This document shows positions 14,613-39,353 of a stretch of 64,000 bases of DNA, in pieces. The DNA is taken from the NCBI RefSeq assembly GCF_963576615.1, contig NC_088711.1:63087248-63151247 (forward strand), written 5' to 3'. Positions within the stretch are counted from its first letter, which is position 1. The number at the start of each line of letters is the position of its first letter. A program made the position numbers and the translations under genes. The notes under the pieces were generated by a model. The model made no database searches. It saw nothing but the letters and a program-made list of their open reading frames with translations, and had not been told where the DNA came from. Origin of the DNA: Watersipora subatra. Lineage: Eukaryota > Bryozoa > Gymnolaemata > Cheilostomatida > Watersiporidae.

Positions 14613-17600
14613 CTACCATGTGATCTGTAGTGGTTCTAGTAAGTTGACATTCAATCTGTCTAACTGGAGCACCTGCAGGAAAATGTCAAAAAAAATTTCC
14701 ATATCTGTCTGATAAGTCACTATCACTGCTTGAATCAATTCGATGTGCAAATCAAAAAAGGAAAACTGATAATCAACAATCCAACAAATAATAAACAAAC
14801 AACCAATAGCTTTTTGTCTAATCATCGTAAATGCGTGGTTGGGTCACCACTGTGTTACCCAGAGGTCTTTGCATCTGCATTAGATTTCCAGGCTCATTGG
14901 AAAACAGGTCAATAGTGCAAAAGTAGAACAGATTGCTATAAGGTGCTAATTACACTCATAATAAATATTTTATCATTGGTTGCTGGTGAGGCAGCTATTC
15001 ATGGTCTATAAATTTGAGCGATAGATTTTAAACATTTCAATAAATTTGAAAGTTAAAATAAGCTTAAACTAGAAGCATGAATAGATCTTTGCTAAGTGTT
15101 GAGAGCCCAAGAAATGAGAGGTTACTAACAAGACAAGGAAATACCAGATTATGGATGAATCAGTAAGTACCATTGATACTTACTCTGTTGGCTCTGTAAG
15201 TGAAAGGAGTGGCTGAGCCATTCACTATAACAGTCTCCGGAGGAACAAACAGCCCAAATATCTGAACAAGTTTCAACTGCATGTTACAGTTACGGTAACC
15301 TAGCACTTCCAACTGGCTAGTCAAGCAACCCTGAAACAAACCCAGTCATTTGTAAGAAAAACCTCTCGCAATATGAGGATGATATTTAACTTACGCTGAG
15401 ATTTTTTGCAACAATCCAGTTCCTCAGATATTTTGGACTCGAGCCAAATCATGAGAAAGGTAGCAGGAAATGTACCATGGTATTTTTTTTGAGAACAAAA
15501 ATAAATCATAGAATCACATGTATTACTTTAGAAAATGTTACAAATGTTGAGCTGTTTTAAGTCAAACTCTCTTATGTTTTCTAGAGCTGGAATAAAACAC
15601 TATAAAAAGCAGCTCAAAAAAAATTCATGAAAACTTACAGTGCTATAAACCCCTAACCCTTAATCACTAGTACAAAAACTACTACAAACGACAAGTGACA
15701 GCAAGTGATGGCAAGTGACACACCTTACCCACCAAAACAGTGGTAAGCCGCATGGTTCAATATAACATAAATTCATCAACTAGTTGATTTCAAACAAATA
15801 GATTATATAAATAAATACTGGGATTAAAAACAATAATATTTTGACGGCATTAAAAGAACTGTAGATTAAATCGTCTTCAGTTTTATTGAATTACTAGCTG
15901 TACTACCCGGCGTTTTTCGGGTAATAAATAAAGTCTAGACAGAAAATTTATTTGTTTTAACATATAATAACATTGGCCATTCCAACTTTCAAACTACATA
16001 TCATGAGATAAGTGTTTTGTGTAATTGAAATAAATTAAGAGAGAACATAAAAACAACTGTGAAGGTTTTCAAACTTTTTCAAACAACTGTAACCTTCAAA
16101 CTTCATGAGGAGAATGTTTTCTGCAGGTCAAATAAATAAAAAAAATAAAACAGCTATAAAAACATTTAAATGTAAATGTGAAATAATTAGCAAGTCTAAA
16201 TTGAGTCTGTTTTGCTACGATTACAATAAAAGATGATTCGATAATGATACAATTAATACAGACTGAGAAAACAAAATAAAAATTCTGAATATGTTGAATT
16301 AATAATAACAATTCTTGCATATAAGTGTGAGTGTATAAAAAGGTTACTCTTTCACCAGAAGCTATCCATCAAAACACTGAATACAAAGATACTGGTACCT
16401 CTTGATACTGGTACAAATGTAAAAATTAAATACCGAACTGTCCTTGTCTGACTGAACAAGGAGAGAATGTCGAGGTTTTTCTCACGACGATAATACAAAC
16501 GCCCGCGTGAAAAGAATCAGCATTGCCCACGATATAGCAATTGAACCTTAAGAAAAACCGACAATAGAAGTTTACGAAAACACGAAAATGCAACGTGTTT
16601 CATAGTTACGCAAAAAATATTTCATAACAGGGGCATCGTAACACGTGGATGCAATGCTAAAATAATACGTCATTTAGCATGTGCATACGCTAACGTGCAT
16701 ACACTAGATCATGCCTTGTATGGTTCAGTGTAGAGCGCCTGGATTCTAAACTTGGGATTGCAACCTTCGTGAGCTCAAATCTATCAGAACGCGAATTTAT
16801 AATTCCAAGATTTTAAAAGCTATAGCTGGACAAACAGACACCAACTTTGAGAAATGTGTATATAGATTGGGAACTAGTTTAAGCTTTACAAACTTTTCAA
16901 ATATTTTACTTTACAGAATATTAGTTAATTTAATAACAAAGCCCTAGTGGCAATGCGTAACCTCCTAATCTATGATTGGCCACACCTTTTCAATATTAAA
17001 CCTGATGAGGTTGTAGGACTTGCTCTCTGCAGGGTCCAACGACTCCCCATCATCCCAATAAAGTCTTCCTTTGGCAGAATGGTTACAATCAAGTGCGGCA
17101 AGAAGTCCAAAAGGACTGCGCTGGCTGTAATGAGACCAACAAGTTCACACGCAGCAGGATAAGTATAAAAAATTTGTTCACACTTTGAAGCCATTCGTCT
17201 TCAGCTTTATAAGAGTTGTCATCTCCTATCGTCACCCATGAAGTCCTCATGTGACATATTGGATTTGTGTTACCATGACAAATTTAATGATTATGCGCGA
17301 CAGCACAATAAATCATTGAGTAGCAAACAATAGAGTAATGACAAAAGAGTTAATTTTGTTGATTGTTAAAACAAAGGTTACCCATAGATTCGATGAAAGT
17401 AGATTTCTATTAAAATTGCGTAATACCATAGCAATGCGTTGGCAGAGGGTTGGGTAGAAAAATTGTTTCCATACTTCACGACAAAAAATTCAATGTTTGT
17501 AGGCCATAATAATCTAAGAAACCAATGGCTAATTTTCGATAGTCGCAGCAATAGGTGCTGCACTGTGACACTGATAGTTGCAGCAATAGGTACTGCACTG

Positions 17601-20600
17601 TGACACTGATAGTTGCAGCAATAGGTGCTGCACTGTGACACTGATAGTTGCAGCAATAGGTGCTGCACTGTGACACTGATAGTTGCAGCAATAGGTGCTG
17701 CACTGTGACACTGATAGTTGCAGCAATAGGTGCTGCACTGTGACACTGATAGTTGCAGCAATAGGTACTGCACTGTGACACTGATAGTTGCAGCAATAGG
17801 TGCTGCACTGTGACACTGATAGTTGCAGCAATAGGTACTGCACTGTGACACTGATAGTTGCAGCAATAGGTACTGCACTGTGATACTGATAGTTGCAGCA
17901 ATAGGTACTGCACTGTGACACTGATAGTTGCAGCAATAGGTGCTGCACTGTGACACTGATAGTTGCAGCATTAGGTGCTGCACTGTGACACTGATAGTTG
18001 CAGCAATAGGTACTGCACTGTGACACTGATAGTTGCAGCAATAGGTACTGCACTGTGACACTGATAGTTGCAGCAATAGGTACTGCACTGTGACACTGAT
18101 AGTTGCAGCAATAGGTACTGCACTGTGACACTGATAGTTGCAGCAATAGGTGCTACACTGTGACACTGATAGTTGCAGCAATAGGTGCTACACTGTGACA
18201 CTGATAGTTGCAGCAATAGGTACTGCACTGTGACACTGATAGTTGCAGCAATAGGTACTGCACTGTGACACTGATAGTTGCAGCAATAGGTACTGCACTG
18301 TGACACTGATAGTTGCAGCAATAGGTACTGCACTGTGACACTGATAGTTGCAGCAATAGGTACTACATTGTGACACCGATAGTTTTATACTAAAGTTGAA
18401 AATGACGAAGCATAACAACGAATGTTAGTCAATGTGAACTTTGACCCACGTAAGACAAACTCTCTCTAATGTCATGGCTACACAGGTTCATGTTTCCTTA
18501 CAATACAGACACTGATATGTTCAGCACAAGTGCATGGCGCTTTACGATGTTTGTGTTTGTTTGGAATGTTTTTGCATTGGATAAGTCTCATTGGCTATTC
18601 ATGTTAGCACTAAAGTCTTATTGGCTACTCATGTTAGCACTAAAGTCTCATTGGCTACTCATGTTAGCACTAAAGTCTCATTGGCTACTCATGTTAGCAC
18701 TAAAGCCTCATTGGCCACTCACGTTAGCACTAAAGCCTCATTGGCCACTCACGTTAGCACTGAAACCTCATTGGCTACTCTTGTTAGCACTGAATTCTCA
18801 TTGGCTACTCATGTTAGAACTGAAGCGGCACAAAAAGCCAGTAATAGCGACAAAAACACTTGAGAGGCTTGGCTCTAGGTTTGGACTGATTCTTAGGAAA
18901 TTCAGCATAAAAATATTTTTCTCATTCTTGTCCTGCAATCAGCTAAATGTGCTGAAATGGCCTGTGGCCCCCGAAGTTTCACTCACAAGTGTCTATAAGC
19001 TTTGTACCAACCTGCAGCTTGTGTTCTGTCCAGGGCTTTGCGTGCTGATTATAGAGCCCCCTCTGACATGGATATTTGTGTGAGACAAGGGGGAAGGTAG
19101 CTGAACAGTTGCACCTACTTTATCAAGACGGTATCCACTGAAGAAATCATACCAGATGTCAAAGGGAAAGTATGCAGAGACAGTAGAAGCACCCTGTAAA
19201 TAAGCAAAAGGTAGGCATAGTAAAGAACCACAAGGAAATCTATCATAAATTTGGGAACTATTGCAAAGTAGCCGAGGCGGTCAAGCAAATCGCAAAAGCT
19301 ATTGTACAACAGTTTGGAAGTCGTAGCTGTTGTGTAATGGGATTTGTTAGGCCCAGGCTACATTTGCCTCTGAGCTCACAGGTGGTCTTGGCAATTACGG
19401 TGAGTGAATAAAGCGGAATAAAGCTAGCGAATAAGGCTAGTAGATTAGGTAGTATAAGGCAGTATGGGGAGAATATAAATAAATATAATGAAAGACGGAC
19501 GTTCTTCTACTTCTTCACATCAATACATGTAAGCGAACACATTTGTACAACAGTAGTAACAATAATAGTAACAATAACAATAGTAGCGAAAATTTGAAGG
19601 AAATTAGCTTGTAACTTGGTGAGATGGTTTTGGTTTCTTATCAATGCGTGACACACAGTCTAACCAACTTTAACACAGTCAAACATGGATAACTCGAACT
19701 TCACGGGACCGAGCGAAAGTGTTCGAATTATCAGAGCGTTCAAGTTATCAGAGCACTGTCACAAGTCCATGTATTTACTTATTTATTAGTAGATACATGT
19801 ACCTATACAAACTATAATATAAATCAAAAGCACAAATGGCTTGTTTCAAATTAAATGCTTCTAATGTAAAGTTTAAAACGTTTTTATCAAAAATTATAGA
19901 GATTTTTTTATCATTTGAGATTTGTTTGTTGATTGAGGTGATGTTATTGCCAGGACGTTTTTTAGATTGACATTGGCAAAACTTGATCGTTGTTGAAATG
20001 CTCAAAAGAAAAGACATCTTTTTCTTTTGAGCGTTTTACCAACGATCAAATTTGCCGATTTTTCTTGAAGTTTATGCAAAGATTACCTCACTTTACCTCG
20101 CTTCCGAAGGGCGATTGCTAAGCGGATGTTTGGTATAAATCAAATTTCACCAAACCTTTAGAAGGTCGTTGACAAAAATATTTTGCCGATGGTGGTAATA
20201 ACGACGCTTATGAATTACGAAAAGTTGAGGTTTACCTCTATGGTTTGGAATAAAGTGATTTTCTAAAGCGATAACAACCGTTTCAGTAGCCGTTGGGCAA
20301 AAAACGGTTCGAGTTAACAGTGTTGAGTTCGAGTTATCTATAGCAATTTATCATTACGTGGGAACGGACCAAAGAAACCGTTCGAATTAACCATGTGTTC
20401 GAGCTATCCGTGGGCGAGTTATCCATGTTTGACTGTATTTTAAAAAGCAGGTTAAACTATGACCTTGAAATTCCAAATACTTCAGTGGCAGTGTACCCTG
20501 TGAAGCGATGTTAACATGTGAAGAATTAATTCTATACCACATTACTATTTTTTAGTATTTCATGAAGCAAAAGAGTGATGCTAGAAGTTGCACCACCTTT

Positions 20601-23600
20601 CCTTGGCTTTTCTTTTGATCAAGTAAACATAGTCTGAGCAAGTGTGCCGGCATTACTAACAACACCCAGTATCACTCATGATGCCAGAACTGGTGCATGC
20701 ATGGTCGCACACTTGCCTTTGTTACAGACATGACGCACAATAATTTGGTAAAGTTAAATTTTTAAATCACTAACTTATATTATAAAAACTGATTTGCTTT
20801 AATTATAGCATCACCAGTGCGTCAGTTGAGTTCTGTTGAGTTTCGGCTGACCAACTGCTACAGTGTTTCTCGCCATGTGCATAGTAACACAACTCCAAAT
20901 ATTTAGGTTCATATTGAATACCAATATGTTAAATATGGTATGTTGTATAAACTGGACATTCAGACTTCAGTGCCATGTCATACTGCATATTCAGCTGAGG
21001 ATGTGATGTCATACTGTATCAGATAATCCTGACGTCTGTTGTGACTTACTGACAGAATTAGTGCCAGAGTGAGTCAGGAAATAGAACTAACATGTGGGAT
21101 ATGAGATTGAACCAATAATAAATATTATTTAAGTATTATAAGCATGTAACAGATGCCCGAGTGTAGGTACTTGCTTTACAAATCAATTTACCAAGTTACA
21201 GGTAATTCGGTAAATTTCAACCTGTAAATTTACCAAATTTACAGGTCAAAATACCGTCAGCCGAAAAACCTTTATAACAAATAACAAATTTAACTTCAAC
21301 TAGTAAAAATTGTCAAAAAGCCATTGAGAGCTAAAAAATTGTCTGCTAGTTGATACCTTATGATTCAAACAGGCAACCCAAAAGGTGCTATCAAAACTTT
21401 ACAAGCTGAAGGACAACATTTGGCTTACCGAAGGTAAAAGCAGTATTGGCCTTTTTCATGATTCTTTTTTAACTATCTTGAACAACCTTTTATATGGATG
21501 TCTCACAAAATTCCGTTATAATAATTTTGATTTTTAGAGTTTAATCTAATTAAATATATTTTTTGTACATTTTTGTTTTAGGCAGACGCCAGAGATCCAA
21601 CAACATTGGGCACTAAAATCTCGGATAGTCGGCTAGCGGCTATCAGTTTTGCGTAATATTCGGAATTGTCAGTACTCTGAGAGTTAGCTGAGAGGATGAC
21701 AACCTACCCGTGTGAGGCATGGGGAGAAGAGGAGAGAGCTTCCCCACATAAACTGACTATCTATGCTGTAGGTCTGTTTGTCTTTAGGATAACTGAAAAG
21801 AGAATCGCTCTTGAAAATCCTGATCAATGACATAAAAAGCTCAAATAATGTTGCTATAAAGTCAGGAGACTAGAGCTATCTAAAAACATCTGTAAAACAG
21901 CATTTGGCAAACAAGACAATACCAGACACCATCTCGAAAAAACTTCCATGCAAACTGGCAAAAAACAAACCATAAAAAAAGTTGAAGTTGTGTTCCTTTC
22001 CCATTTGACTAACTCCACCGATTTCGGCCAAAAGGAGAGCAACTGTATGATTCTCTAAATGATGCATTATTCAAGAGTATTAGAATACTACTAAGATAAT
22101 TAGCAATGTGTCTGTAGTCAGTGATTATGTCTTCAAATCATACAGATCTACTATTGAACTTCCCGACTACACACTCTCTTTGTAGATGTCAATACTACCC
22201 TCTTTCAGGTGGTGTTTTATTTAGTTTAAATATTCTATATCTAAATATTCATTTACAATCTCCAACGATACTGATTTTTCAACATACCATACATCATGAA
22301 ATTTGAACAAAGTTCTGGGACCACACCCGAAGTTATTTCCAGCACATGTCGTTTGAGGCTTTTCTAGCCTTCCATAAGCATAATGAAGAGGCTGGTGAAA
22401 TTAGGTGAAAACATAAACAAACATAAGAATAATTAAAGAGAGATAAGCCAAATTAGTTTAGCTATCACCTAGTTTATGATAGCCTAGGTTATGCAGCGAC
22501 TTTTCCTCACAAACTCTATCACTGAGCCTACACTTCTATTCAAGCATCTTTAACATAGAGGTAAAGTCACAATGAAAAACCTCTATTTATTCAGTTAATT
22601 TTTTGCATTTAGTCTTTTAACCTGGTTTCAAAGGATGCATTCGTTTTACTGCAATATATGACTATCGACAGTATTTATTGACGAGTTTTCATAAGTTTTT
22701 GGACTATGGAGCGAATTAAATGAATGACAGCATATTCTTATAGGAATATTGCGCCAGGATACAATGGCTTTAACATACAAAGCACGTATCAGAGCAAATT
22801 TACCTTGTATGTAGAGATTTGACTGCAGTATTAAAAATGCTTATAAAATGTTTCATTGAGACCTTCAATCAAGGGGCATGGAACCAAGGCTAAAATATTT
22901 GCCCTGAATAACTTATAAAATGAAAACTAATATTGTGAAAAACCGCTACATAATCACTATTTACACCAGTAAAATGTAAAACTAAAGCTTATTCTGTCAG
23001 GTTTAGTTTCAGAGTTACCAGAGTTCGCCATCCATTTTTCAAGATAACTCCAAAAATATAGCTGTTTTATTTGGCTGACAAGTTTGGGGAGAAACTTGTT
23101 TAGATTTGCAGACTAAGCAGAAATTTGTCAGTAAATAAGAATAACTCCTTTTCAACCAGCCCTAGCCAACTTAATTAGTCTACAATCAATAGCCAACTTA
23201 CAATTTAGTCTACCAATCGGTAGCCCCGTAAAGCCTGGTTCTCATGTACGCGGCAAGCACCGGCGACAGAACCACAGGCTATCAGCCATGTGAACCTGCG
23301 CACCGAGTACCGTTGATAGTTGCTGGCAGTCAACGCAAGAGTTTAGCGCTGTTCAAATTTCGCGAAGAGCCGCAGGCAAAACCTTCCCGAAATGCACTGT
23401 GCAGGTGAAGGTCAGCATTATCGAATCGGCATGGCGAGCGAACATTTTTATGCGATTATTAGCGATGCAGCTTTATGTGAACAGAAGCCACCGAGCCTAG
23501 CGTCGCAGGTGTTTGGCGGCGCAAGATTACCGTCGGAGTCTCGCAATCGATATGGGAACCAGGCTTTACATTTAGCCTACCAATCAATAGCCAACTTTCA

Positions 23601-26600
23601 ATTAGGCTACCAACTAGTATCCAAATTTTATCTTGCTTACAGCATTTAATAGCTAACATAAATTTATAATGAATAATCTATAGACAAGTTGACTAGTTTT
23701 ATCCAATCATAGGTCAATTTAGGTTTGGTTTAACCAATCAGTAGCCAAATTGTATAAGTGTAATCAACCATATTGGCTTCTCAACAAAAATTAAACCAAT
23801 AAGCAATGTAACAATTATCTAGCCTGTGAGCGATGCAGTTGTATTAACTTACATCATAAGGAGAGGTCTGACCGCAGTTGTCCCCACCATATGGCACTCA
23901 TATAACAAGGTGTAAAGGAAAGGAAGTAGCGAGTACCGAATTCTAACAATGTCATTCACAATTGCCTGTTCATCTGTTTCCAAGTCTGCCTTCTGACAAT
24001 GAAAGACAACTCTCATATTGCTCTTGTAACATTGAAGTCTGACCCAAATATCTGTCCAAATTTTTGAACTGTAATACTTAACAGCAATGCCAAAAATTGT
24101 TACTAAATGTGCAAACAATATGCTTTCTTAAAAATCATCCTCCTCTGTCCAGTAGTTTCAACTTTTAGTTTAATTAATGTGCTACACAAATATTTGTAAG
24201 CCAATAAAATATGAACCCCGCAAACAGCGAAATTAGACAAGCGCTTTGACTAGACAAGTGAACTCATGACTGAACTGATCAGGATTTACAGTGAAGGCCG
24301 AAGCACCCAAATGCGCAATAGCTTCTTAAAAACAAAACAGAATTCTATAGGTCTACCAATAGCTGCCCCGACAGTTATACACTTAAGCTATAATATAATT
24401 GTATGCTTATCATACAATTATATGTAAATCTGTGAATGTAGGCAGATTTACATTGCTGCCTACACTTACAGTTTTGTAGGAAGTAATGTAAATGTTTTTA
24501 CTTACGGTTTTGGAAGCAGCAATGGAAGTGTTTTTGAGGAGTGGAAAGAAAGCTGCTAACTGAAGCCAACGAATGTAAAGCTCTCCTGTACAAGTAGAAC
24601 TGATGTCTGATCCAACGAGAGAGACCCCATACATGCTGTTAGCTAAAATGGCTGAAATAAAAACAGTCTTTCAATCAAATATCCACCTCTTACGATCTTC
24701 AAGAGTTATATTAACCAAAATATAAGTGCCCAAAGTTAACAACGAAAAGCTAAAAATATTAACTTCTACTTTCATAAAAAAATTTTCATATCAGATAAGT
24801 TATTGAGTATTTATAGAAGCATCTGATACTACTATCAGCACTGCAATATATCCATAACAATCTGTTCATATATTTACACGAGGAATTACTTGTTTGCGTT
24901 GGGCAGTGAATTACCACTTTTACTAGAAGTGTAACTACTGACTAGGTATAGATTTACGCTAGACAAGCACCTACCTTTACCATTTACTATGCGACTATCG
25001 CTTTGAAAATGTAGTTAAAGTCTACGCAGGGTGTTTATATTACACGCTGTATACAGATAATACTGGCCTGAGGTACCTGCTATGGAATGTCTCAGGTCAG
25101 GAAAGGATAAAACTTTTCCAATGCAGTGGCCTGAGTACTGCCCACTTCCTCCAGTCGTGTAGCTGGATATTAGCAAACTCCGCCTCCCCCGAACTCTTCT
25201 GCACAGACTAAAGAAAAACATGATAAATTTCATCTCCTTTTTTCTACTTTTCACTGTTCTGTACTTTTTTTCCAAAGAAATAAAACAAATAAACAGACAA
25301 ATCTTTTGCCAGTCTATGATTGACTCTATGGATATGTGTGTTCAGATTCTCGCCATCCTTATGATCAGACTATAGTGCTAGCCTATAGTAGATATACTCA
25401 TCCCTATAGCGATCAGTCGATGGAATTGGTATGATTAGCAGTCAGGCAACACTAGTTTAAATATTACAGACAGCTGTTGGATCCACAACAGCCAGTGAAA
25501 CAAGCTTTACCTACATCACATACTCATAGAAACACATAGGTTCTCTAGCATGTTGCCATTGGAATGATAAGGCAGATTTTGTGTGCTTATCACCTAATGA
25601 CCCGATTTCACAGCTAACATTTCACAGATCGTTCTCATCGATTTTCCTTCATAGTTATGATAGAAATAATTTTGAATATGTAGGCAGTAGTAACATAGAC
25701 ACTTGATAGCATCTGTTAGCACCTGTTAGTTCCTATTAGCACCTGTCAGCAAATGTTGCTACCCGCTAGCACCTGTCAGTATCTGTTAGCACCTGTTAGC
25801 ACTTGTCAGTACCTGTTAGCACCTGCTAGTACATGTTAGCATATACTAGTAAATGTTAGCACTTGTTAATACCTACTAGTATCTGTTAATACATGTTAGT
25901 ACCTATTAACACCTGCTAGTACTTGTCAGCACCTGTTACTACGTGTTTGTACCCATTTCTACCTGTTAGCACCTGTCACTACTTGTTAGTACCCATTTCT
26001 ACCTGTTAGCACCTGCTGCTACCCGTTAGCACCTGTTAGTACCTATCAGCACTTGCTAGTACCTGTTGGCATCTATTAGTACATGTTAGTGCCTGCTACT
26101 ACCTGTTAGCATCCCGTAGGGAAGCACAAGAAAGCCTCTCAACAGTTGAATGATTTCTCTTCCTCGATACTCGAACTGCTGCCATCCCATTTCTGCCATT
26201 TCTGGTATGGTTATCTAAAGTAAATATAGTTTCATTATGTTTTTTGATATCACTGTCTCCTAACTGAAGAGTTAATCAAATAAGAAAGCAAGTGGAAGAG
26301 CAAGAACTAACTGGAGGAGTGAGCATGAGCCAAGTCACAGGAAGGATAATCGCAACCCATCTGGGCATCAGATTCGTCAACATCCTGTAAAAGATTGAGC
26401 CAATTATTTTAACTCTAATGCTGACTGATTCAAACGGAAGTATGAACAGTGGTTAAGAAAATATCTACAGCCAGAGAAGCAGCAGGTTGCACTAAACAAA
26501 GTTTTCCAGTTGCATGGCTTAAGTTCTCATAGTGTGATTTCAATGGCTTACACCGAAGCTAGTGTTACTGGCAGTAAAGAGTCAGCGACTAGATACATGC

Positions 26601-29600
26601 AGATGCAATGACTTACCAAGCAAAGTCCATCAAAAGGGATATCTCTGTGTAGCCTCTGTACAAATTCCAACCAGTATCTCAGCTCTTCAGTAGGGCTTCC
26701 AATTACCGGTCTTTCTTTACCCTGTGTCACAGCCTGAGGGGTTTATAAATAGTGCAGAATGATTAGGTATACATCTCATCAATGTACTAGCTACTAGATG
26801 TTCTACACAAAGTCATTAAAACAGCAATAAATTTTCAGTAGCTTGTTTACGAAACAATTCTTTAGCGTTTCTCTTGACTCCATTCAATCGAGAACACTTG
26901 AACTTGCATGAAAGCACAACTACCATAATTCAACCATTGCTCTTGATATATCTTATATCTATATATATTATATTTCTCAATGTTGGTTGTTCGTCGTTGT
27001 ATATATCCATTTATAGCTATAAAAAATCTTGGAATAAAGAATCCGGAAAGCGGAAGACTTGATCTCAAAACCTCCCATTCGTCTGTCCAACACCTTACTA
27101 AGCCACACAAGCTTCATAGAATTCGCTAGGCAATATATGTCCCTATATGGGAGCAAATAGGCTACCGCTTTCGGTCACAATGCAAAGTGATGGCGTAACG
27201 TCATGAAAAGCGGTAGCTCTTATTAGTAACCTTACTCAAATTATCCATCGGCAATGTGCCAAGCTAATAGCAAGTGGCAGGCGACGCTCATTGTCGCATT
27301 GTTTATAAGTTGATTTTTAATACCTAGGCAAGGCCGGTTAGCACAGCTAGTACGTATATCTATATATAGCGCGTGTTGTAATAAAGGCTCACCTTGTTAT
27401 CACTTGTTGGGCTCTGAACAAATCTGTGGTGCAGCACATTCTGTGACTGTAAAGTTGAGAGTACTAAACATGTCAACAGAGAACAACTACAGAGCTATAA
27501 ATGCAACTGCTTCATCTACTTTAATCTTACAGTTTCCAAAGCCTTCCTTTGTGGCTACTTACAATGATTGGAATGTATCTTTGTCCATTTCCGTGTAGAT
27601 TCTGCACAACTCTCCCCAATTGTTCAAGCATTTCTTGTGGTAGATTGATGTCTAGATCGGCCCACTGACTCTCCTATAAATAAACAATAAAGCATATTAT
27701 TAAAAGTTATTTTAACGCATACACATTCTAAGGTAGAAGAGAAGTGGGTAATGTGGACAGTTTTTCTTTTTATTACAGTTACTACTATTCTATTCACTTT
27801 AGAATACTCTAAATTATGTCTTTAGCTTGCAGAGTTTGTTGGCTCTCTTTTCTTAATTGCATGTTTTATAATACAAGCAATAGTTTTTCCGGAATCCACC
27901 ATATCGTAAACCACAAGATTTTCCACATTACCCACCATCAGTGGGTAATGTGGACAGGTGCACTGGGTAATGTGAACATGTCATTTTTTGTCATTAAAAG
28001 TAAATATTTTTCAAATATTTAAATAACTACAAGTAATATATGCATTTAGTTATATTCAATTTAATGTAAACTGTACAGGAATAATTATGGTAATAACCCA
28101 GATTTTCCTTTAGTATTGTTGGTATAACAAATTATGTCTATCTTAAATTGAATGCTGATTGCTTAAATTCAAATATGTGTCCACTTCTGGTTCTTTCTGT
28201 ATTTCCCTGCGACAGCGGTTTAGGTAAGACTAATTTGAGCTGGCTGCGACTCACATATTTACAATCTGGTAGGTCTGGCTTGAAAAACTTCCCACTCCTG
28301 TGCCGGTAAAAGTCTACTTCCAACTCTTCAGAGGCAATAGTTTTAATTAACTTAAGGCAATTAATTTAACATTCATTTTCTAATTACAACATTTTAAAAA
28401 ACTTGCGTCTACTAATCACAATCAATAGATGGTGCAAAACAACATTCACTTTTGCATTCGTAATTATTGGCAAATAATTGTTGAACTGAAAAATTTACAT
28501 GCAGGCTACATATATTAGTAAATTTACTAGTAAGCCTAGTAGTAGTAGAACTTAACAATTTAGACATCAAGACAATCAACTGTCCACATTACCCAGCTGT
28601 CCACATTACCCACTTCTCCCCTACAGAGGAACCACAAGATACAAAATCAATCCATTTCAATATGTACTTTGTATGTCAAAACAGTCGTATGTTAGAGCAA
28701 ACCTTTTTATATGAATATATATTTGAATTGTGTGCAATTCGTTTCATAACTCAAATACAATCATAAATACTTCAGATAGTTACAAGCAAAACAAGAACAA
28801 ACGCATTATATAATACTAAGAAAACAGTTTAGAGCTCTAAATCATGTACATGTATAAAAACTTAATCAAGAAAGTTATAATCAGTAATTGTTAAAGGTTG
28901 ACTTGCAACAAAATTAAGTCACTTTACTTAAATTAAGTTAAGTTACTTCAGGGACAGGTGGCTGTAAGTGTAGGCTCAGCAATGCTTAGGTTCAATGCAA
29001 AAGTGACAGCTGTAAGCAGGTTACACTAAATACAGCGTAAACTAATTTAATTTATATATTTGTTATTGTTCTTATGCTATATTTTCTACTTTTATAAAGC
29101 TGCGACATTTTAAAATATCCTAGGCATCGGATGTTGTATGTCCATTACATGTTGCATGTACACCACATGTTTTACGTCCATCATATGTTGCATGTACCCC
29201 ACATGTTGCATGTACCCCACATGTTGCATGTACCCCACATGTTGCATGTACATCACATGTTGCATGTACATCACTTGTTGCATGTACACCACATGTTGCA
29301 TGTACACCACATGTTGCATGTCACCACATGTTGCGTCAAATATCTGCTTATATTTTACGTTGCACATTGAACAATTTGTATGCAGGCGTGTTAATAAGTT
29401 TTGATTTGACTGAAGAAATAACTTGGCCATATATAGCGCTTTGACACATACATGAGGTGTAAGGAATTGTTTCCTCTTCTCTATTGCACTGTTTAGTTCA
29501 ACTGCGGAGTGACAATCTTCTACTGCAAAGTGAAAGCCTAAACTCCAGTACGGGGGTATATGAGGCCTGCCTATCATCTCTTGGTACTGTTGCACCACCT

Positions 29601-30020
29601 ATAAATATAATAGCACAACGATTGTAACTCGATAAATAATTTTTAATTGGAGTTGTTCCTCTAATGTTGAGTAAATAACTCTAGCACAAAAACATGAATT
29701 TGCTTGTGATAAACTGTATGAAATATAAGTGAGTTTCTATTGGCTGTCAAAAAATGCCATTGAAAAAGATTACGTACTTCCATTGGTCCAGGCCCTGTGA
29801 ATATATATAGGTCAAACGCTCTGCCACAATCATATGAAAGGTATCCTGGCTGGCCGTGACGAATAGAGATATCTGTAGATACAAGTAAAAAATAGAAATG
29901 ATGTAATTACAATGTATAATTTTAAACAATGAACTTGAAAGCTTCACTACTACTAATAATATTAATAATAATAACAATAATAATAATAACAATAATAATA
30001 ATAACAATAATAATAATAAC

Positions 30021-30058
<38 letters not shown>

Positions 30059-33000
30059 TACTAATAATAACAATAATAATAATAACAATAATAATAATAA
30101 TAACAATACTAATAATAACAATAATAATAATAACAATACCTGTAATAAAGTTGTTGCACAGATACAGTCCATGAGCATTTCCATCTTCCTCCAGTGCAAG
30201 GAAAAACGGCTGACAATTTTGAGTCTGAAAGGAAAGGATATTGGCATATTTGTTGACTACTAAATGCTTTGCATATGTCAAAAAGCTGTCGGTTGCTGTG
30301 TCTAGAATTCATGGGTCATGTGGTTGGATGCTGTTTAGTACATTAACTACATGTGCGACCAGAGCAGCTGTACAGGCAAGCACCATAGTGCTATCATCTA
30401 CTGGTCAAATTGCATTCAACCATCTGATAATTCATGCATCAAAACATTCTACACCAGTCAGTAGAATAATAATTAAACAAAACTGTGATGTGAGGGCAAA
30501 GGTCATGTGCAGTTATATGAATATTCTCTAGATTAGCTGGCTCATATACAACCTGTCAAGACTTTCATGGACTTATGCCATTGCTTTTATAATGAAATAT
30601 ATCTTATACAAAAAGGCTAGCAAGGAATCTATTTATTTTGTACTACTGAGTGATGAGAATACAACTCCAAAGCACTCGAAGGTTTCATCTCATTTGGCGC
30701 ACTGTGAAAATGAAAATCATTGTAAAAAAACCTGCTGAAGCTTGGTAGGACATGAAAAAGGTTGAGATCCTCCACATCTCGTGTCTATGAGGAAGCTAGT
30801 ACGAGCAGATGTGAGACCATAGAGACACCTGCTATAGACTGCCGTAGTGACACGCATCCTTCCCTCTTCATAGCGCAACTCGCCATGACTACTATCGAAT
30901 CTACAACGGCCACCATTTGCGTGTTTACACAGTCAAAAGGAGTGCCTACGGTTAATGATCCAAGTTTCCATGGTTACAATACTGTAGTAACAAAATAATT
31001 CTTAGTTTTCTGTTCAGTCAACAGGATATTATTCAGTCAACACATTTTAGAATATATAAATATATACAAAAGTTAAACAGCCTTTGCATATGTTAAATTT
31101 GTATGTTTCTCGGCTCTGACAAGGTTCCAACAATGCCAGAGTCAGGCTTCCTGTAAGATTGCTATTTGTTGTCCTCTTGCCTATTTACCCCATATGCTAG
31201 TCAAACAGCCAGAGGAATTATTCTCTTGAGAATAGCCTATGTCAATACTAAATGGTGTAAGATTAAGGAGACAGGTCGGGCTGCCTGACAAACCCTTATA
31301 CATGTACAGGGACAGCCAAGATAGGATCAAGATTTCTAATTAAGGAAGAGCTTGTTGTTAGCCTCAGGATACAACCGTGTACATATTTAGAATGAAAACA
31401 ATTGCTCACTTTATGAGCGTGCTGATCGAGGAATGCCTCAGTGATAATAGAAAAGACATATTTTACGAATGGCCTTATACATGAGCTGATGGTCTTTGTG
31501 CAGAAGTGCTGCACCTTTTTACTGGCAGCAGCAGTACTATCGTTCTTAGTAACAAGCCTGACTACTACCTCCTGGTACAAATGCAGCTGCTAGCATCACA
31601 AGAAATTCTCAATGAATACGCATTGTGGTTGAGGAGATACGATTAGCTCCTCACTTCAGCAGCGATGCTGACCGATGTAGGCAATTATTGATCATTGGCA
31701 GCGTTTGATACCGCATACATAATCTTTTGCTGGGTTTGCTGTTAGTCTGACACAACAGCACCCACCAACTGTCATTATATTTCTATAGCGTTTTCCACAT
31801 CAGCCTCTAAAAACTTGCATAGTGCACCAAATATTGTTTGCTGAAGGACAGGCACCCTACTATTGTCTAAAAGTTCTCGAGTGATCTGCACAAACGTAAA
31901 TGTCAACCAAACGACTCGATGCTGATAAACCTGCTGTGAGTGTTTGCGTACGGCATTAGAATGAGCTGATTAACCGTATCAAGAACGGAAAAATGTAAAA
32001 AATCTCATTTTGAAAAAGTTGCAGTCGAGCAGCTTTACTGAATGAGCCATTGGCCGTTGTTGGTGTTTGTTACGTACCAAACATTAGCCCAGTTGTAAAG
32101 TGGCTAATCACAAAGAAACATTGTTAACAAACATATCACTTTGTCGTGCAGTGTTTTATTCATTGGAATTGTTATAATGCAATGATATGGCACCATGGCT
32201 AGCAGCTGTTCACTAGCCTGCTAAATCAAAGGGTGTCCCGGTGCAGCTAGATTCATGCATGCTGGGAAACCCTATGAGAATAGGCCTCATGTACTTACAG
32301 AATAAAGCCTGTGGTCTTGCGTTTCACAACTAAGCTGAAAGGATCTTCTCTGTACTCTATTGTGTATTGAGGATGATGGGCTTTCTTAAAGTTGGAGTCC
32401 CTATGTGTCAGCTGCGCTGTACTGGAGTCTGAAACCTGCAGTATCAGGGATTACATATGAACCATCAATATTCCTGGATGAACCCATACGTATATAACAT
32501 ACAATCCACTCAACTAGATTCAGTAATTTCTGACTGTTTACATCTCTTCTTAGCATACTTCTCACAGGTGCTGGAAAGGGAGTGACCCAGCGTGAACCTT
32601 GTTAACCAGGAAAACATTTGAGCCGGTAGAGATTGTAGCATTCATCATTTATTTTATAGAACTGCATGCAAATGTTGAACTGATTTCCAACTTTCACTAG
32701 ACCAGAGTTACTCTCTCTCTCGACAGGAAGGAAGCGGTATCCAGCAGGTAAGAACTGATTAAAACATGCTGTCATATTTCCATCCTGTTGCAGTGTCTAT
32801 GGATTGGTTTGTTTATCCTCGCTCTAGATGCTGCCACGGTGCATCATTGAAATAGCGCAGTGTATTTACACGCCATTGGTTCTGTAAGGGTGTCCAGTTC
32901 AACCTCCCTATTGTATGGGCGTTGACGCTTTAGTTACAGTCCGCCCAACCGATACGTAGGGACACACCTCTATGTATCGTTACTATCCTTACAATAAACT

Positions 33001-35826
33001 TTCAATGTTAGGGATGTATATATACCTGCAGTATGTATGCCTGTTACATCATAGACACACCTATACCTGCTGTATTGCAACAATATGAGGTATACACCAA
33101 CCCCTGCAGAATCACATATACATCTATACCTATAGCATTCGGGGTCATATCTATACCTACAGTATTAATAGTTAGAGCAAATCCTTCAACGTGATTATAC
33201 CTACAACGTTGGAGGATACAGCTGAACTGTCAATATCCAATACATACAATTATAGAATTACGGATACAAGTGAACCTACAATTTTAGGCTCCGCCTTTCC
33301 TTGTTATATTAGTGGGATCCAGCACAACATAAGGTATATACCTATATAATTTGTATTAGGGGATAGAGCAGAACCTGCAATATTAACAGATAAACCTATA
33401 ACTATAATATTAGGTGCACACCAGTACCTACAGTATTAGGTACACATATGTATATACAATACTAATGCATACACCTGTAATCACAGTACTTAGAGATGTC
33501 CTTATACCTATAACACTGAGTACTCTACAGTAGTAGAGAATATGTTTACACCTAAACACAACCATCACCTCCAATAACAGATGTCAACCATAATGTTAGC
33601 GACCGACCAGAATGAATCTCATAGACTTTTAAATACATCTACAAGTGTTTTCAACATCGGTTATGCAAAAATCTTTGGAGTTGTCTGTAATGGCAAACCC
33701 ATGAGTGTGCAGCTAGTTACGATAATACAGGATGGGGCGAGTGAAATCCCACCCTAACAATCTGAACAATCGCTAACTCATAAATACTATTAGTCTGTGC
33801 ATCTTAAGAGAGCTTCCCTGATGAGCTCTCCATGCCAGCAATTATTTCTAGAGAGTTACGGAATTTCTACGCCTCAATAAAATCATCTGATAATTAAGCA
33901 TTGATCTATCACCTGGTGATTTGCGAGTACTGCTGCCAGCTGACCATTACCACTTCTAGCAGCAGAACGCATGGCTATTCTTATTATAGTTATTCTTATT
34001 ATAGTAACCTAATTGACCTTATTCACTGAATCCCTGCCACTTCACAGGATCCATCTATCCGCAAAATTATGTGTCAATGGCTCCAAGCGCAGCATGAAAA
34101 AGAATTACATTAGGGTCAGCACTCTCAGCTACCAGGTGAGTAACACTGACCAATTAGACAGCAACGAGGTAAGTATTGGGTTAATAGCCCTCTAAGAATA
34201 GAAGGATGTGACCTTCACAGGTCATATAATATTCACACCGTAAAAGGCTTTCTTTCGCCCAACCACTTTCTTCCAGGTCATGAAGGTAGTAGATATTAAT
34301 CCATGCAATGTCTAAGAAGTGTTGTGAGAAGCAAAACCCTTGTATTTCTTGTCTATTGTCTACTTGTCACACCAGATACGGTATGACAGAATTTGACAGG
34401 TCAACTAATATATAAAGCAATGGATTAATGATGGCTGTCATACATGATTATTTTCCAAAAGGAATGTTGGGCACCTGCGCTTCTACAGGCTACCACGGGA
34501 TTAACACTAATCTGTTTCCCTCGACATTCGAACCTACCGTTTTACCGTTGCAGTATCACTGCTCAATAGGGGCGAGGTTAGAACTTTTTACACACAAAAT
34601 TTAGCTGAATCACTAGGTTTCAAAAAATCTTGATAATAAACAAATTAGAAATCCCCATGCTGCCGGATTCATGAGGGCATCAACAAATATACTGACAATT
34701 TGTGTAAGAGACAAGTGAGTGCTTGAGAGAACGCCTCTGCCTGGCCCAACTCAAGTGGAGACACTTGATACAAGTGCCCAGTGACTTGTGCAAACAGTCA
34801 TGCGCTGCCGTGCTACAGAAATGCTTTTGCAGAGCCCATAAAGCGAAAAACCAGAAACGTTATAGCCTAGTTCAAATATTCAGTGATACAAAAGTGAATG
34901 ATTGTGTAGCTACCAATCAGAGATGAAACCGAGCTGAAGCTGGCTGCAGAAATAAGGCTAACCTGTTTTGATTTACGTAGACGCATGCCCTTGCCTACAG
35001 GCGCTAATTGGCTGCAGAAACCGTGGCCTCAGGCTTAAGATAATTTTGTTAGCCTACTCAGAGTTAGCACTTCAGATACATGATTTACAAAATCAGTGTA
35101 GTAGTTACAAGTGTTGATAAACTGCTGCCAGCGATGAAAGGGAGAGTCAACCCGTACATAGCAGCCTTCAATGCTGATTCACAGAATTGAAGTATGCTTT
35201 AGTTTCAATATTAATATAACTGGAAAACCCTTTACAACAAAATGTAGATGCCCAAACACACGCTTATAAAGTCCTATAGACCAACTAAAGATTTCTGTTA
35301 TCGCTACTAAATGTGGCAAACTAGACTATTTTGCAGACGATAATTAACGATGATTAGAACTAAGTCAGAGAAGGGCTAAAGCTAGTCCTGTGCGTGTGTC
35401 TCAACTATTGTCGACACAACATGCAAGGCCTGAAGGCATGCCAAACTTTTGCCTAACATAATTTAACAAAGTAGGCATTACCTTTAAATGAAACCTGTAG
35501 ACTGTTTCCTCCTTTGCTTCCACAATCAGGGAAGATGCCCTACCATTCGCAGTTTCTAACTGGAGTCGGGTAACCTCTTTTGAAAAGGAAACATCCTGAT
35601 TAGCACTGTGTGTAATATAATAGTCTGTGACATTTGCAGGTTCACATCTTGCCTCCTTGTCAATAAGCGAGATTGATTCCTGTGTAGTAGATCTAGTAGT
35701 CGTATTATTATTCATTTCCGGAAGGTTCTTAAGTGGCTTGTGCCATCTTTGTGGAGATGGAGATGGGCGCCTGTGAGAGGCTGGTGAGGGTCGTGCAGTT
35801 TGACTAGTAGAGTGTTGCCCCCCCAT
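14613..35826 (-). CDS. Glycoside hydrolase family 31 protein (acid alpha-glucosidase/maltase-like), probable pseudoenzyme, 18 coding exons
   Basis: GH31 enzymes remove terminal alpha-glucose; lysosomal GAA and brush-border maltases are the nearest kin. Exons 5' to 3': 35826-35482, 32435-32299, 30900-30732, 30224-30140, 29872-29778, 29598-29452, 27673-27563, 26733-26617, 26384-26312, 26201-26103, 25193-25077, 24651-24506, 23992-23853, 21792-21708, 19193-19012, 17124-16986, 15330-15184, 14672-14613. All junction phases agree and the total is 2394 nt (797 aa plus stop). Landmarks: CQPFFLALEEDGNAHG, IGRPHIPPYWSLGFHF, QWADLDI, PFDGLCLDVDES (nucleophile Asp kept), QYSGHCIGKVLS (acid/base Asp is Lys), GVSLVGSDIS, IRYSLLPFLYTLLYE, QFMWGSSLLFSP, NIHVRGGSII, GRLYWDDGESLD. 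No trefoil domain or signal peptide was found; a 5' UTR acceptor at 35834-35835 precedes the ATG. The 26201-26103/25193-25077 junction is the least certain. Confidence 0.88.
15895..15960. repeat. Interspersed-repeat fragment with a short hairpin
   Basis: agctgtactacccggcg followed by tttttcgggta forms a small stem-loop. This tail resembles a widespread invertebrate retroposon end, but I cannot name the family. It is intronic to GH31. Confidence 0.3.
16715..16795 (+). repeat. tRNA-derived SINE head or tRNA pseudogene
   Basis: tggttcagtgtagagcgcct resembles a polymerase III A box, and gagctcaaatc about 40 nt later resembles a B box. The clover-leaf stems are not clean, so a tRNA-derived SINE head is likelier than a functional tRNA. 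Confidence 0.4.
17538..18383. repeat. 35-bp tandem array, about 24 copies, in GH31 intron
   Basis: Near-identical 35-bp units containing gttgcagcaataggt and ctgcactgtgacac; the main variation is tgctgc versus tactgc. Because 3 x 35 = 105 and the minus strand of the unit has no stop in any frame, long repeated ORFs appear there; these are artefacts. The array sits in the intron between exons 19193-19012 and 17124-16986. Confidence 0.97.
18583..18823. repeat. 30-bp tandem array, about 8 copies
   Basis: Units of 30 bp built on cattggctactcatgttagc. The period is a multiple of three, so each plus-strand frame gives ten-residue peptide repeats inside an open frame at 18469-19083. No gene features support coding, and the end of that frame runs antisense over a GH31 exon. 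Confidence 0.95.
19680..20430. mobile_element. CAGTC-ended inverted-repeat element, copy 1, about 750 bp
   Basis: Ends cagtcaaacatggataactc and its reverse complement (gagttatccatgtttgactg), with TA on the right flank. Several internal gttcgaattatc-like words repeat in both orientations. A diverged second copy lies at 50379-51123. CAGT termini with TA suggest a pogo/Tc1-type non-autonomous element. It sits in a GH31 intron. Confidence 0.7.
21093..21345. repeat. Dispersed repeat, copy 2
   Basis: Same-orientation partner of 13970-14190, starting gtgggatatgagattgaacc. Contains an extra stretch with repeated tttaccaa/aatttacag words absent from copy 1. Confidence 0.65.
23229..23568. mobile_element. 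Inverted-repeat element with taaagcctggtt ends
   Basis: Begins taaagcctggttctcat and ends with tatgggaaccaggcttta, inverted. The interior is GC-richer than its surroundings and non-coding. A related element lies at about 60100-60499 and a lone end at about 61468. Confidence 0.6.
25077..25193 (-). other. GH31 exon where the acid/base Asp is replaced by Lys
   Basis: Translates to ...RRSLLISSYTTGGSGQYSG then HCIGKVLSFPDL. The family consensus here is ISRSTFAGHGRYAGHWTGD: Arg600 becomes Ser, Trp613 Cys and the proton donor Asp616 Lys (codon aaa), human GAA numbering. The acceptor is either ag at 25194-25195 (phase-consistent with the previous exon) or the stronger cag at 25199-25200 (phase conflict). 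Confidence 0.85.
25690..26110. repeat. Degenerate 10-bp tandem array abutting a GH31 splice donor
   Basis: About 40 imperfect units of (t)tagcacctg/ttagtacctg. Read on the gene's (minus) strand each unit is close to gctaacaggt, so the array is a chain of AG|GT donor-like sites. The real donor of exon 26201-26103 (aacag|gtagta) is itself in the first unit. Confidence 0.85.
26312..26384 (-). other. GH31 exon carrying the nucleophile Asp
   Basis: Joined to the preceding exon this gives FDGLCL|DVDESDAQMGCDYP, aligned with the family motif FDG-x-WIDMNEPSNF. The nucleophile Asp (D518 in human GAA numbering) is kept, but the preceding Trp is Cys, NEP is DES, and the loop that follows is rewritten. 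The exon runs gat gtt gac gaa... and ends at donor gttagt, phase 1. Confidence 0.85.
27050..27110 (-). repeat. tRNA-like SINE head
   Basis: On the minus strand, tggcttagtaaggtg (A-box-like) is followed about 30 nt later by gagatcaagtc (B-box-like). Likely a decayed tRNA-derived SINE in a GH31 intron. Confidence 0.35.
27733..28624. mobile_element. Inverted-repeat element, about 890 bp, with gggtaatgtggacag ends
   Basis: The left end gtagaagagaagtgggtaat and the right end (read inverted, gtaggggagaagtgggtaat) match over about 30 bp. The word gggtaatgtggacag recurs inside near 27946 and twice at the right end. Non-coding MITE in a GH31 intron. Confidence 0.7.
28895..28920. repeat. Solo end of the 10.5-kb TTAA element family
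   Basis: TTAA then aggttgacttgcaacaaaat, identical to the left end of the element at 10507. No matching second end was found nearby, so this is a truncated copy. Confidence 0.6.
29137..29333. repeat. 18-bp tandem array, about 11 copies
   Basis: Units built on catgttgcatgtacccca; each contains the partial palindrome catgttgcatg. The six-residue peptide repeats in ORFs here (plus and minus) are artefacts. It lies about 120 bp downstream of the donor of GH31 exon 29598-29452. Confidence 0.93.
29944..30139. repeat. AAT/AAC trinucleotide microsatellite touching a splice donor
   Basis: About 195 bp of (aat/aac)n. On the gene strand the GH31 intron begins gtattgttattatt, so the microsatellite starts within about three bases of the 5' splice site of exon 30224-30140. 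Polyleucine/isoleucine ORFs here are artefacts. Confidence 0.97.
33000..33560. repeat. Degenerate repeat of 'tatacctacagtatta' words in GH31 intron 1
   Basis: Variants of tatacctgcagtat/acctacagtatta recur every 30-45 bp with heavy decay. It is probably an old minisatellite; the period cannot be fixed by eye. Confidence 0.5.
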
Positions 35827-38666: not shown

Positions 38667-39335
38667 TCATGCATCTTGTGCCTCCATCTCTTTAGCCCAA
38701 GAAGTCTTTTCTTGAGCTACCATGCCACCTGTTGTGGCATGGCTAATCTCATTAGCCATGCCATCTGTATAGGCTGCTGTCGAAACAGTATCCTCTGCAC
38801 CTCCCTTATTTGAGGTGTAGGGAGCTAAGTGAGCCTTCTCGCCAACAGACAGCTGGTTGTCTGTAGGTAACTTTACCTTAGACTGAGTAGCGGGTCGCTT
38901 AGCGTATTTCAGAACTTTGTCCTTCAGAATGCCCAAGTTTGCCAAGGCATCCTGTACCTCCTGCTTATTCTCTATCTCCAACCGAAGCTGGCACTCATCA
39001 ACCTCTACAGCTGCAATGGCTTTCCTGTACTGTTCCTCAATTCTCAACCTGTGCTCGACAAAGGTGTGTTTGCGCTGTTGGATGATCTCATGTGACATAA
39101 AACTTGACTGAACTTTATTAAGAAAGCTGCTCACCTGATTCATGAAAGGTTGAAGCTTACCCTGAGCTGCCTCTGCGTAGATGGTGCTACGAGCATGCAT
39201 TTTTGTTTGCGGACCAGCTCCTTCTGAGCTAGTGCTATCCCTCATTGATACCTTTTCTGGTCGACCTTCATTCCTGTCCTTCCCATCTCTGGGACCTTTA
39301 CCTTTTCTATCATTTTTATTCACCAAGTTTGGCAA
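38667..39335 (-). CDS. 222-aa ORF in the position of pol, with coiled coil
   Basis: Intact frame in an otherwise decayed element. N-terminus Lys/Arg/Gly/Asp-rich (KNDRKGKGPRDGKDRNEGR), then a helical, probably coiled-coil middle (HTFVEHRLRIEEQYRKAIAA, ECQLRLEIENKQEV), then a Thr/Ala-rich tail. No reverse transcriptase or integrase residues. It could be a structural accessory protein or captured host sequence. I do not recognise it. Confidence 0.45.
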   Translation of the reverse strand: MPNLVNKNDRKGKGPRDGKDRNEGRPEKVSMRDSTSSEGAGPQTKMHARSTIYAEAAQGKLQPFMNQVSSFLNKVQSSFMSHEIIQQRKHTFVEHRLRIEEQYRKAIAAVEVDECQLRLEIENKQEVQDALANLGILKDKVLKYAKRPATQSKVKLPTDNQLSVGEKAHLAPYTSNKGGAEDTVSTAAYTDGMANEISHATTGGMVAQEKTSWAKEMEAQDA

Positions 39336-39353
39336 CTTGCCATCTAAAAGATG

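What the first reader, a model, noticed from the sequence alone, without database searches (positions are those of the whole stretch)
14613..35826. Intact GH31 (acid alpha-glucosidase-like) gene with a dismantled active site: candidate pseudoenzyme
All 18 exons keep splice sites, phase and frame over 797 codons, so the protein is under some constraint. Yet the proton-donor Asp (D616 in human GAA) is Lys in GHCIGKVLS, Arg600 is Ser, Trp613 and Trp516 are Cys, His674 is Thr (FPLLKNTS), and the loops that carry Trp376 and the WPG segment are rewritten or deleted. The nucleophile Asp, the QW-DLD Asp and the Asp of VGSD remain. An intact frame with a lost acid/base suggests a binding, chaperone or regulatory role.
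Basis: partly seen in the sequence, partly recalled or inferred. Interest (0 to 1): 0.75.

Follow-up and report, generated by a model that had tools for sequence, protein, structure and literature searches.

The report
Dead-site paralogue of acid alpha-glucosidase
An animal genome keeps a full-length relative of the sugar-cutting enzyme acid alpha-glucosidase whose cutting site has been destroyed while the rear part of the protein still looks maintained by selection, so it is probably used for something other than cutting sugar.

Summary
The window (unnamed 784-Mb genome, animal by its APP gene) holds an 18-exon minus-strand gene, 35826..14613, 806 codons without a stop, collinear with GAA/sucrase-isomaltase (GH31). 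Of 17 introns, 13 match active GAA/SI-type paralogues of the same genome within one codon and in phase. Plain decay is unlikely: beyond residue 690 the gene keeps 85-87% of family-invariant columns, like active paralogues (79-90%), but 37-49% before that (active 86-97%), and neutral drift able to ruin the site should leave 14 or more stops. The genome also holds GAA-type and SI/MGAM-type genes with all catalytic residues. Best reading: an old, single-copy GH31 pseudoenzyme from a GAA-type gene. What it does is not shown. Weak points: exon 10 without detectable homology, weak splice sites at exon 3, unknown N-terminus, no orthologue or transcript. GH31 proteins without catalytic residues are reported in sandflies and mosquitoes, so this is a new member of a known kind.

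The parts
35482..35826 (-). exon 1: start codon and N-terminal extension (no signal peptide, transmembrane stretch or trefoil seen) plus start of the N-terminal beta-sandwich; an upstream exon joined at acceptor 35833 is possible
   Evidence: trefoil sought by pattern and tblastn
32299..32435 (-). exon 2: N-terminal beta-sandwich
30732..30900 (-). exon 3: counterpart of the YGLGEH region, degraded to LYGLTSARTS; weak splice sites
   Evidence: homology 99.5 vs shuffle maximum 91.5, 0 of 100 shuffles reach it; splice scores -0.9/-2.1
30140..30224 (-). exon 4
29778..29872 (-). exon 5
29452..29598 (-). exon 6: start of the barrel; the RWGY loop with Trp376 is rewritten (HFAVEDCHS)
27563..27673 (-). 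exon 7: QWADLD, keeps Asp404 and Asp406; about 6-7 residues after it deleted
26617..26733 (-). exon 8: Asp443 lost, VWPG segment with Trp481 deleted in frame, ends FDGLCL (Trp516>Cys)
26312..26384 (-). exon 9: DVDES, nucleophile Asp518 and Glu521 kept, Met519>Val; donor 26312 or 26339
   Evidence: donor scores -0.5 and -0.9
26103..26214 (-). exon 10, uncertain: phases fit (1 in, 2 out) but no detectable homology; alternative 25712-25619
25707..26111 (-). 20-bp tandem repeat between exons 10 and 11, overlapping the last 9 bases of exon 10
25077..25207 (-). exon 11: ISSYTTGGSGQYSGHCIGKVLS; Arg600>Ser, Trp613>Cys, acid/base Asp616 lost
24506..24651 (-). exon 12: VGSDIS keeps Asp645; CGF lost; KNTS in place of RNHN
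23853..23992 (-). exon 13: IRYSLLPFLYTLL...TTAVRPLL, strongly conserved
21708..21792 (-). exon 14
19012..19193 (-). exon 15: C-terminal beta domain
16986..17124 (-). exon 16: WDDGES region, strongly conserved
15184..15330 (-). exon 17
14613..14672 (-). exon 18 with stop codon TAG

Best explanation
A single-copy, anciently diverged GH31 pseudoenzyme: a protein-coding paralogue of GAA-type alpha-glucosidase that lost hydrolysis (no acid/base, no Arg600, no His674, pocket tryptophans and loops gone) but is kept as a folded protein. Shown by sequence: the gene structure (one exon apart), the losses, and the uneven retention. Inferred: that it is translated, folds like GAA and cannot hydrolyse. Most likely mode of action (inference, no direct evidence): it works as a non-catalytic protein partner, with the preserved last barrel helices and C-terminal beta domains as the working surface and the former catalytic face freed from constraint, much as heparanase-2 acts on heparanase-1. 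Glycan binding in the old pocket is less likely, since the pocket is gone.
For: Collinearity with GAA/SI/MGAM without stop or frameshift. 13 of 17 introns shared with own active paralogues, 12 of them with own GAA, which has 13. Invariant columns kept: 66 of 126 in all; 24 of 27 beyond residue 690 against 42 of 99 before (Fisher p=1.8e-5); leave-one-out control: active paralogues 79-90% beyond 690 and 86-97% before, window 85-87% and 37-49%. Active-site set (recalled list): 3 of 16 kept against 63 of 110 of the rest (p=0.006). Neutral simulation: levels at which on average 6 or more of the 16 site residues change give on average 14 or more stops; from divergence 0.1 up, 0 of 150 runs per level stop-free. 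Splice scores on average close to those of active paralogues. Best-scoring match elsewhere in the genome only 35% identical over 82 residues. Own GAA, two SI/MGAM-type genes and GANAB keep Asp518 and Asp616.
Against: Exon 10 not identified by homology; exons 3 and 9 have weak splice sites; a satellite array touches exon 10. No transcript, orthologue or dN/dS. The start ATG gives no signal peptide, whereas the own GAA locus has a hydrophobic N-terminal stretch and trefoil cysteines (open frames). Cysteines 647, 658 and 558 of the GAA barrel are gone (pairing recalled, 558 lies in the uncertain exon), so folding in the secretory pathway as in GAA is not assured. Own GANAB, an active but more distant gene, also keeps only 24 of 42, 37 of 56 and 19 of 27 of the same columns, so low retention in the front alone does not prove loss of function. 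Codon scores do not single out the frame: in 8 of 18 exons another frame scores higher. The tree leaves the parent open: branch 2.86, no starred group.
Confidence: 0.72

Rival explanations
1. A decaying pseudogene: a GAA duplicate that lost function and happens still to show an open frame.
For: Weak exon 3 and exon 9 splice sites, no homologous sequence for the HNLYG exon, satellite array touching exon 10; long branch; coding frame not singled out by codon score in 8 of 18 exons.
Against: No stop or frameshift in about 800 codons, although neutral drift large enough to change the site gives 14 or more stops on average; retention beyond residue 690 equals that of active genes.
Confidence: 0.17
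2. A variant of the best explanation, not exclusive of it: a pseudoenzyme in which only the C-terminal half is still used, so that the barrel is nearly free to change; front exons may be partly skipped in transcripts.
For: Retention 85-87% beyond residue 690 against 37-49% before; the unidentifiable exon and the weak exon 3 lie in the front part.
Against: The front part also lacks stops and keeps frame and most intron phases. An alternative start near the C-terminal exons was not looked for.
Confidence: 0.2
3. Still an enzyme, with another residue as acid/base and another substrate.
For: Asp404, Asp518 and Asp645 remain.
Against: Arg600, His674, Trp516, Trp613, Trp481 and Asp616 are gone together and pocket loops are deleted.
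Confidence: 0.04
4. An artefact: a wrong gene model or mis-assembly hides an intact site.
For: One exon and its junctions are uncertain.
Against: The D616 exon is bounded by introns at places and phases found in own paralogues, and the motif patterns hit nothing in the six frames of the window.
Confidence: 0.02

Closest known systems
Lysosomal (acid) alpha-glucosidase GAA, GH31 (human; own copy at C4:19.43 Mb)
   Same: 31-32% identity, 12 introns shared with own GAA, which has 13 in its model, collinear domains
   Different: Acid/base, Arg600, His674 and pocket tryptophans lost; VWPG loop deleted; no trefoil or hydrophobic N-terminus found
Sandfly and mosquito lysosomal GH31 proteins without catalytic residues (PMC8063059, passages read)
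   Same: GAA-type GH31 proteins without the catalytic residues; the authors infer lost activity
   Different: In the sandfly both aspartates are glutamine and the sequence is truncated; the authors suggest these insects may lack lysosomal glycogen breakdown. Here the nucleophile stays, the acid/base goes, loops are deleted, and a GAA with its catalytic residues is present
NET37/MYORG-like GH31 without catalytic residues, clade IV of the same paper
   Same: GH31 proteins predicted to be inactive
   Different: Another GH31 subfamily by name; the window gene was not put in a tree with NET37 proteins
Heparanase-2, GH79 (PMC12406646, passages read)
   Same: Works-like candidate: a catalytically dead paralogue kept beside the active enzyme
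   Different: Other family; its inhibition of heparanase-1 is reported, here no role is shown
Inactive GH28 of herbivorous beetles (PMC6549527, abstract read)
   Same: Inactive paralogues that matter to the same pathway as the active ones
   Different: Multigene family; here a single copy

Membership tests
GH31 (fold and sequence family) | Match to GH31 barrel and C-terminal domain models | tested here: met
   PF01055 108 bits (cut-off 23.5), PF21365 87.3 bits (cut-off 24.4)
GH31 (active enzyme) | Nucleophile Asp518 and acid/base Asp616 | tested here: not met
   Asp518 kept, Asp616 lost
GAA-type alpha-glucosidase | -1 subsite residues (recalled set of 16) | tested here: not met
   3 of 16 kept in the MAFFT alignment; 4 of 16 if the alignment is anchored on the intron (Ile441)
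GAA-type alpha-glucosidase | Trefoil domain and signal or anchor at the N-terminus | tested here: inconclusive
   None recognised in exon 1 or upstream by pattern and tblastn; the Pfam trefoil search of the genome did not complete; an upstream exon cannot be excluded
GAA-type gene lineage | Intron positions and phases | tested here: met
   12 window introns match own GAA, which has 13 in its model
Pseudoenzyme | Catalytic residues lost | tested here: met
Pseudoenzyme | Kept as protein by selection | tested here: met
   Uneven retention and absence of stops; indirect, no dN/dS
Pseudoenzyme | No activity, non-catalytic function | not testable with these tools
   needs protein
Pseudogene | Stops or frameshifts | tested here: not met
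   0 in 806 codons of the chosen model; one exon choice uncertain

The most novel reading that the evidence does not exclude
A GH31 scaffold in which the catalytic face has been given up and the last barrel helices and C-terminal beta domains have become the working part, with the trefoil and perhaps the secretion signal lost too, so that a lysosomal enzyme was turned into a protein acting in another compartment.
Probability: 0.25. Interest if true: 0.6.

Novelty: new member of a known kind. Interest (0 to 1): 0.4.

Why it matters
If maintained as a protein, it shows which part of the GAA fold has a use apart from catalysis. That bears on how the C-terminal half of GH31 enzymes works in general. 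It also adds a case, beside a GAA that keeps its catalytic residues, to the GH31 proteins already reported without them.

Tried and rejected
Exon 25712-25619: matches SI around HNLYG a little, but 3 of 60 shuffles score as high and its codon score is -0.32. A first shuffle test for it was uninformative, since the alignment did not bridge the region. Micro-exon 27413-27393: 25 of 100 shuffles as good, left out. Signal peptide or anchor upstream of exon 1: hydrophobic open pieces exist (36093, 40018, 43482), none with further support. Naming the animal: COX1 not found in the assembly, the 18S search did not complete. Structure prediction was not requested: the tool takes proteins read letter for letter from the DNA, and this one is spliced. 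Literature searches; GH31 + pseudoenzyme + catalytic residues gave 0 papers.

MAFFT misplaces the stretch RYIPII/AVT. Anchored on the intron, Ile441 is kept, Asp443 is Ala and Pro444 is Val. This changes the active-site count from 3 to 4 of 16 and a few other columns; the counts in the report are those of the MAFFT alignment.

The intron list was typed. Model A's exon 10 and acceptor 25207 were chosen with the paralogues' phase 2 in mind, so the match at position 453 is not independent (the profile run had picked 25207 on its own, the second run of that call had not). The count of 15 of 17 within four codons takes donor 26339, not model A's 26312.

Full report
What is there. The window is G000:C4:63087248-63151247 of an unnamed 784-Mb genome, an animal by its APP gene (inference). 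On its minus strand lies one gene of 18 exons from 35826 to 14613, 806 codons in my model A, no internal stop. I found the exons with a splice-aware aligner that allowed stops and frameshifts, with human GAA, SI-N, MGAM-C and a five-sequence profile as queries. None of these alignments used a frameshift or a stop; they differ from one another in the weak regions named below. Pfam finds the GH31 barrel (108 bits) and C-terminal domain (87.3 bits) in the model.

Support for the model from other genes. I modelled other GH31 genes of the same genome in the same way: a GAA-type gene (C4:19.43 Mb), two SI/MGAM-type genes (C9:55.45, C5:0.43) and GANAB (C5:64.29). The window gene shares 13 of 17 introns with the three GAA/SI-type genes within one codon and in the same phase, where 0.43 would be expected for uniform places, and 15 of 17 within four codons; 12 match the own GAA, which has 13. 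The aligner knew nothing of the paralogues' introns. I did use the phase at position 453 in choosing model A's exon 10 and acceptor 25207, so that one match is not independent. Mean splice scores (2.33 donor, 2.14 acceptor, for the profile's own chain) lie within the range of the active genes (1.84-4.11 and 1.55-2.23).

What is lost. Against eight active GAA/SI-type domains, 126 columns are invariant and the window gene keeps 66. Of a recalled set of 16 active-site residues among them it keeps 3 (Asp404, nucleophile Asp518, Asp645) against 63 of the other 110 (p=0.006). Lost: acid/base Asp616 (Lys or deleted), Arg600>Ser, Trp613>Cys, Trp516>Cys, Met519>Val, Phe525>Gln, Arg672>Lys, His674>Thr, Trp481 with the VWPG loop, and Phe649. 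Trp376, which is Trp or Tyr in the family, is Glu. The motif patterns I searched hit nothing in the six frames of the window, so there is no sign of an alternative exon with an intact site. The own GAA, two SI/MGAM-type genes and GANAB keep Asp518 and Asp616.

Why not plain decay. Losses are uneven. In a leave-one-out comparison the three own GAA/SI-type paralogues keep 86-97% of invariant columns up to residue 690 and 79-90% beyond. The window gene keeps 37-49% up to 690 and 85-87% beyond (for the full set 42 of 99 and 24 of 27, p=1.8e-5). The rear part is thus as conserved as in working enzymes. A control cuts the other way: own GANAB, active but more distant, keeps 24 of 42, 37 of 56 and 19 of 27 of these columns, so a low figure in the front is not by itself proof of lost function; the contrast between front and rear is smaller there. 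In a neutral simulation the levels that change on average six or more of the 16 site residues leave on average at least 14 stops, and from a divergence of 0.1 upward none of 150 runs per level was free of stops. The simulation assumes uniform neutral drift since the loss and ignores indels. Codon scores are weak support: 18 of 18 exons of model A lie above the mean of random pieces of the locus (-0.24, sd 0.22), but in 8 of 18 another frame scores higher, and the training genes are homologous.

Weak points. Exon 10 is the main one: the region that carries HNLYG in active enzymes has no recognisable counterpart. Exon 26214-26103 fits both phases and has fair splice sites, but no homology; exon 25712-25619 has slight homology (3 of 60 shuffles as good) and a low codon score. 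A 20-bp satellite (25707-26111) touches the end of exon 10. Exon 3 has weak splice sites (acceptor -0.9, donor -2.1), although 0 of 100 shuffles reach its homology score. The N-terminus is open: from the start ATG there is no signal peptide or trefoil, while the own GAA locus has open frames with a hydrophobic stretch and trefoil cysteines; a coding exon spliced to 35833 cannot be excluded. These points keep a pseudogene at 0.17.

Origin. No close copy was found: the best-scoring match elsewhere in the genome is 35% identical over 82 residues, and shorter matches of up to 58% belong to the paralogues already named (a search that scores only its best candidates). In the tree the gene hangs on a branch of 2.86 beside human GAA and own GAA, outside the SI/MGAM clade (90/95), without firm support for its own place. 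The intron at profile position 498, phase 1, is shared only with the own GAA among the paralogues. An old duplicate of a GAA-type gene is the simplest reading.

How it may work. Catalysis is very unlikely: the acid/base, the arginine and the histidine of the -1 subsite are gone together with pocket aromatics and loops. Binding sugar in the old pocket is unlikely for the same reason. What is preserved is the rear of the barrel and the C-terminal beta domains. I therefore favour a non-catalytic protein partner, as heparanase-2 is to heparanase-1 (PMC12406646, passages), but this is inference.

What is known. GH31 proteins without catalytic residues are on record: the lysosomal alpha-glucosidase of the sandfly has both aspartates replaced by glutamine, those of mosquitoes also lack the residues, and one clade of NET37 proteins lacks them (PMC8063059, passages). 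Dead glycosidases with other roles are reported in GH79 (above) and GH28 (PMC6549527, abstract). The window gene is a further member of that kind; its own features are the kept nucleophile, the deleted loops, the normal C-terminal retention and the GAA with catalytic residues on the same contig.

Noticed in passing
window 62281-62793 and 63371-63679, minus strand: Exons of an amyloid precursor protein (APP) gene: E2 domain (5.7e-29) and copper-binding domain (3.7e-20).
   Followed up: no
window 40219-40680, minus strand, with open frames 39867-40256 and 38667-39353 beside it: Open frame with a weak PNMA match (E=0.0037, 17.2 bits, cut-off 25), perhaps a retroelement gag; the two neighbours match no Pfam family.
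   Followed up: no
window 17538-18384, 5486-6711, 55786-56345: Tandem arrays with periods of 35, 31 and 16 bases; the first lies inside the intron between exons 15 and 16 of the GH31 gene.
   Followed up: no
window 25707-26111: Tandem repeat whose unit on the minus strand reads CTAACAG and CAGGT, resembling acceptor and donor sites, touching the uncertain exon 10.
   Followed up: partly
L012-L014 (C9:55.45 Mb) and L015-L017 (C5:0.43 Mb): In the tree one gene groups with the C-terminal halves of human SI/MGAM (97/96) and the other with the N-terminal halves (94/95), as if the two halves had been separate lineages before the vertebrate tandem gene.
   Followed up: no
window protein: 21 cysteines in 806 residues against 1-11 in the four own paralogue models, and 9 tryptophans against 17-21.
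   Followed up: no
G000:C1:21.884 Mb, C7:57.98 Mb, C7:62.343 Mb, C4:26.472 Mb: Further GH31 matches; the first two look MYORG/NET37-like by my reading of their motifs (recalled), the last two were not read.
   Followed up: partly
window 10791-10955, plus strand: Weak match with an internal stop to the hydrophobic N-terminal open frame of the own GAA locus (E=0.017), probably chance.
   Followed up: no
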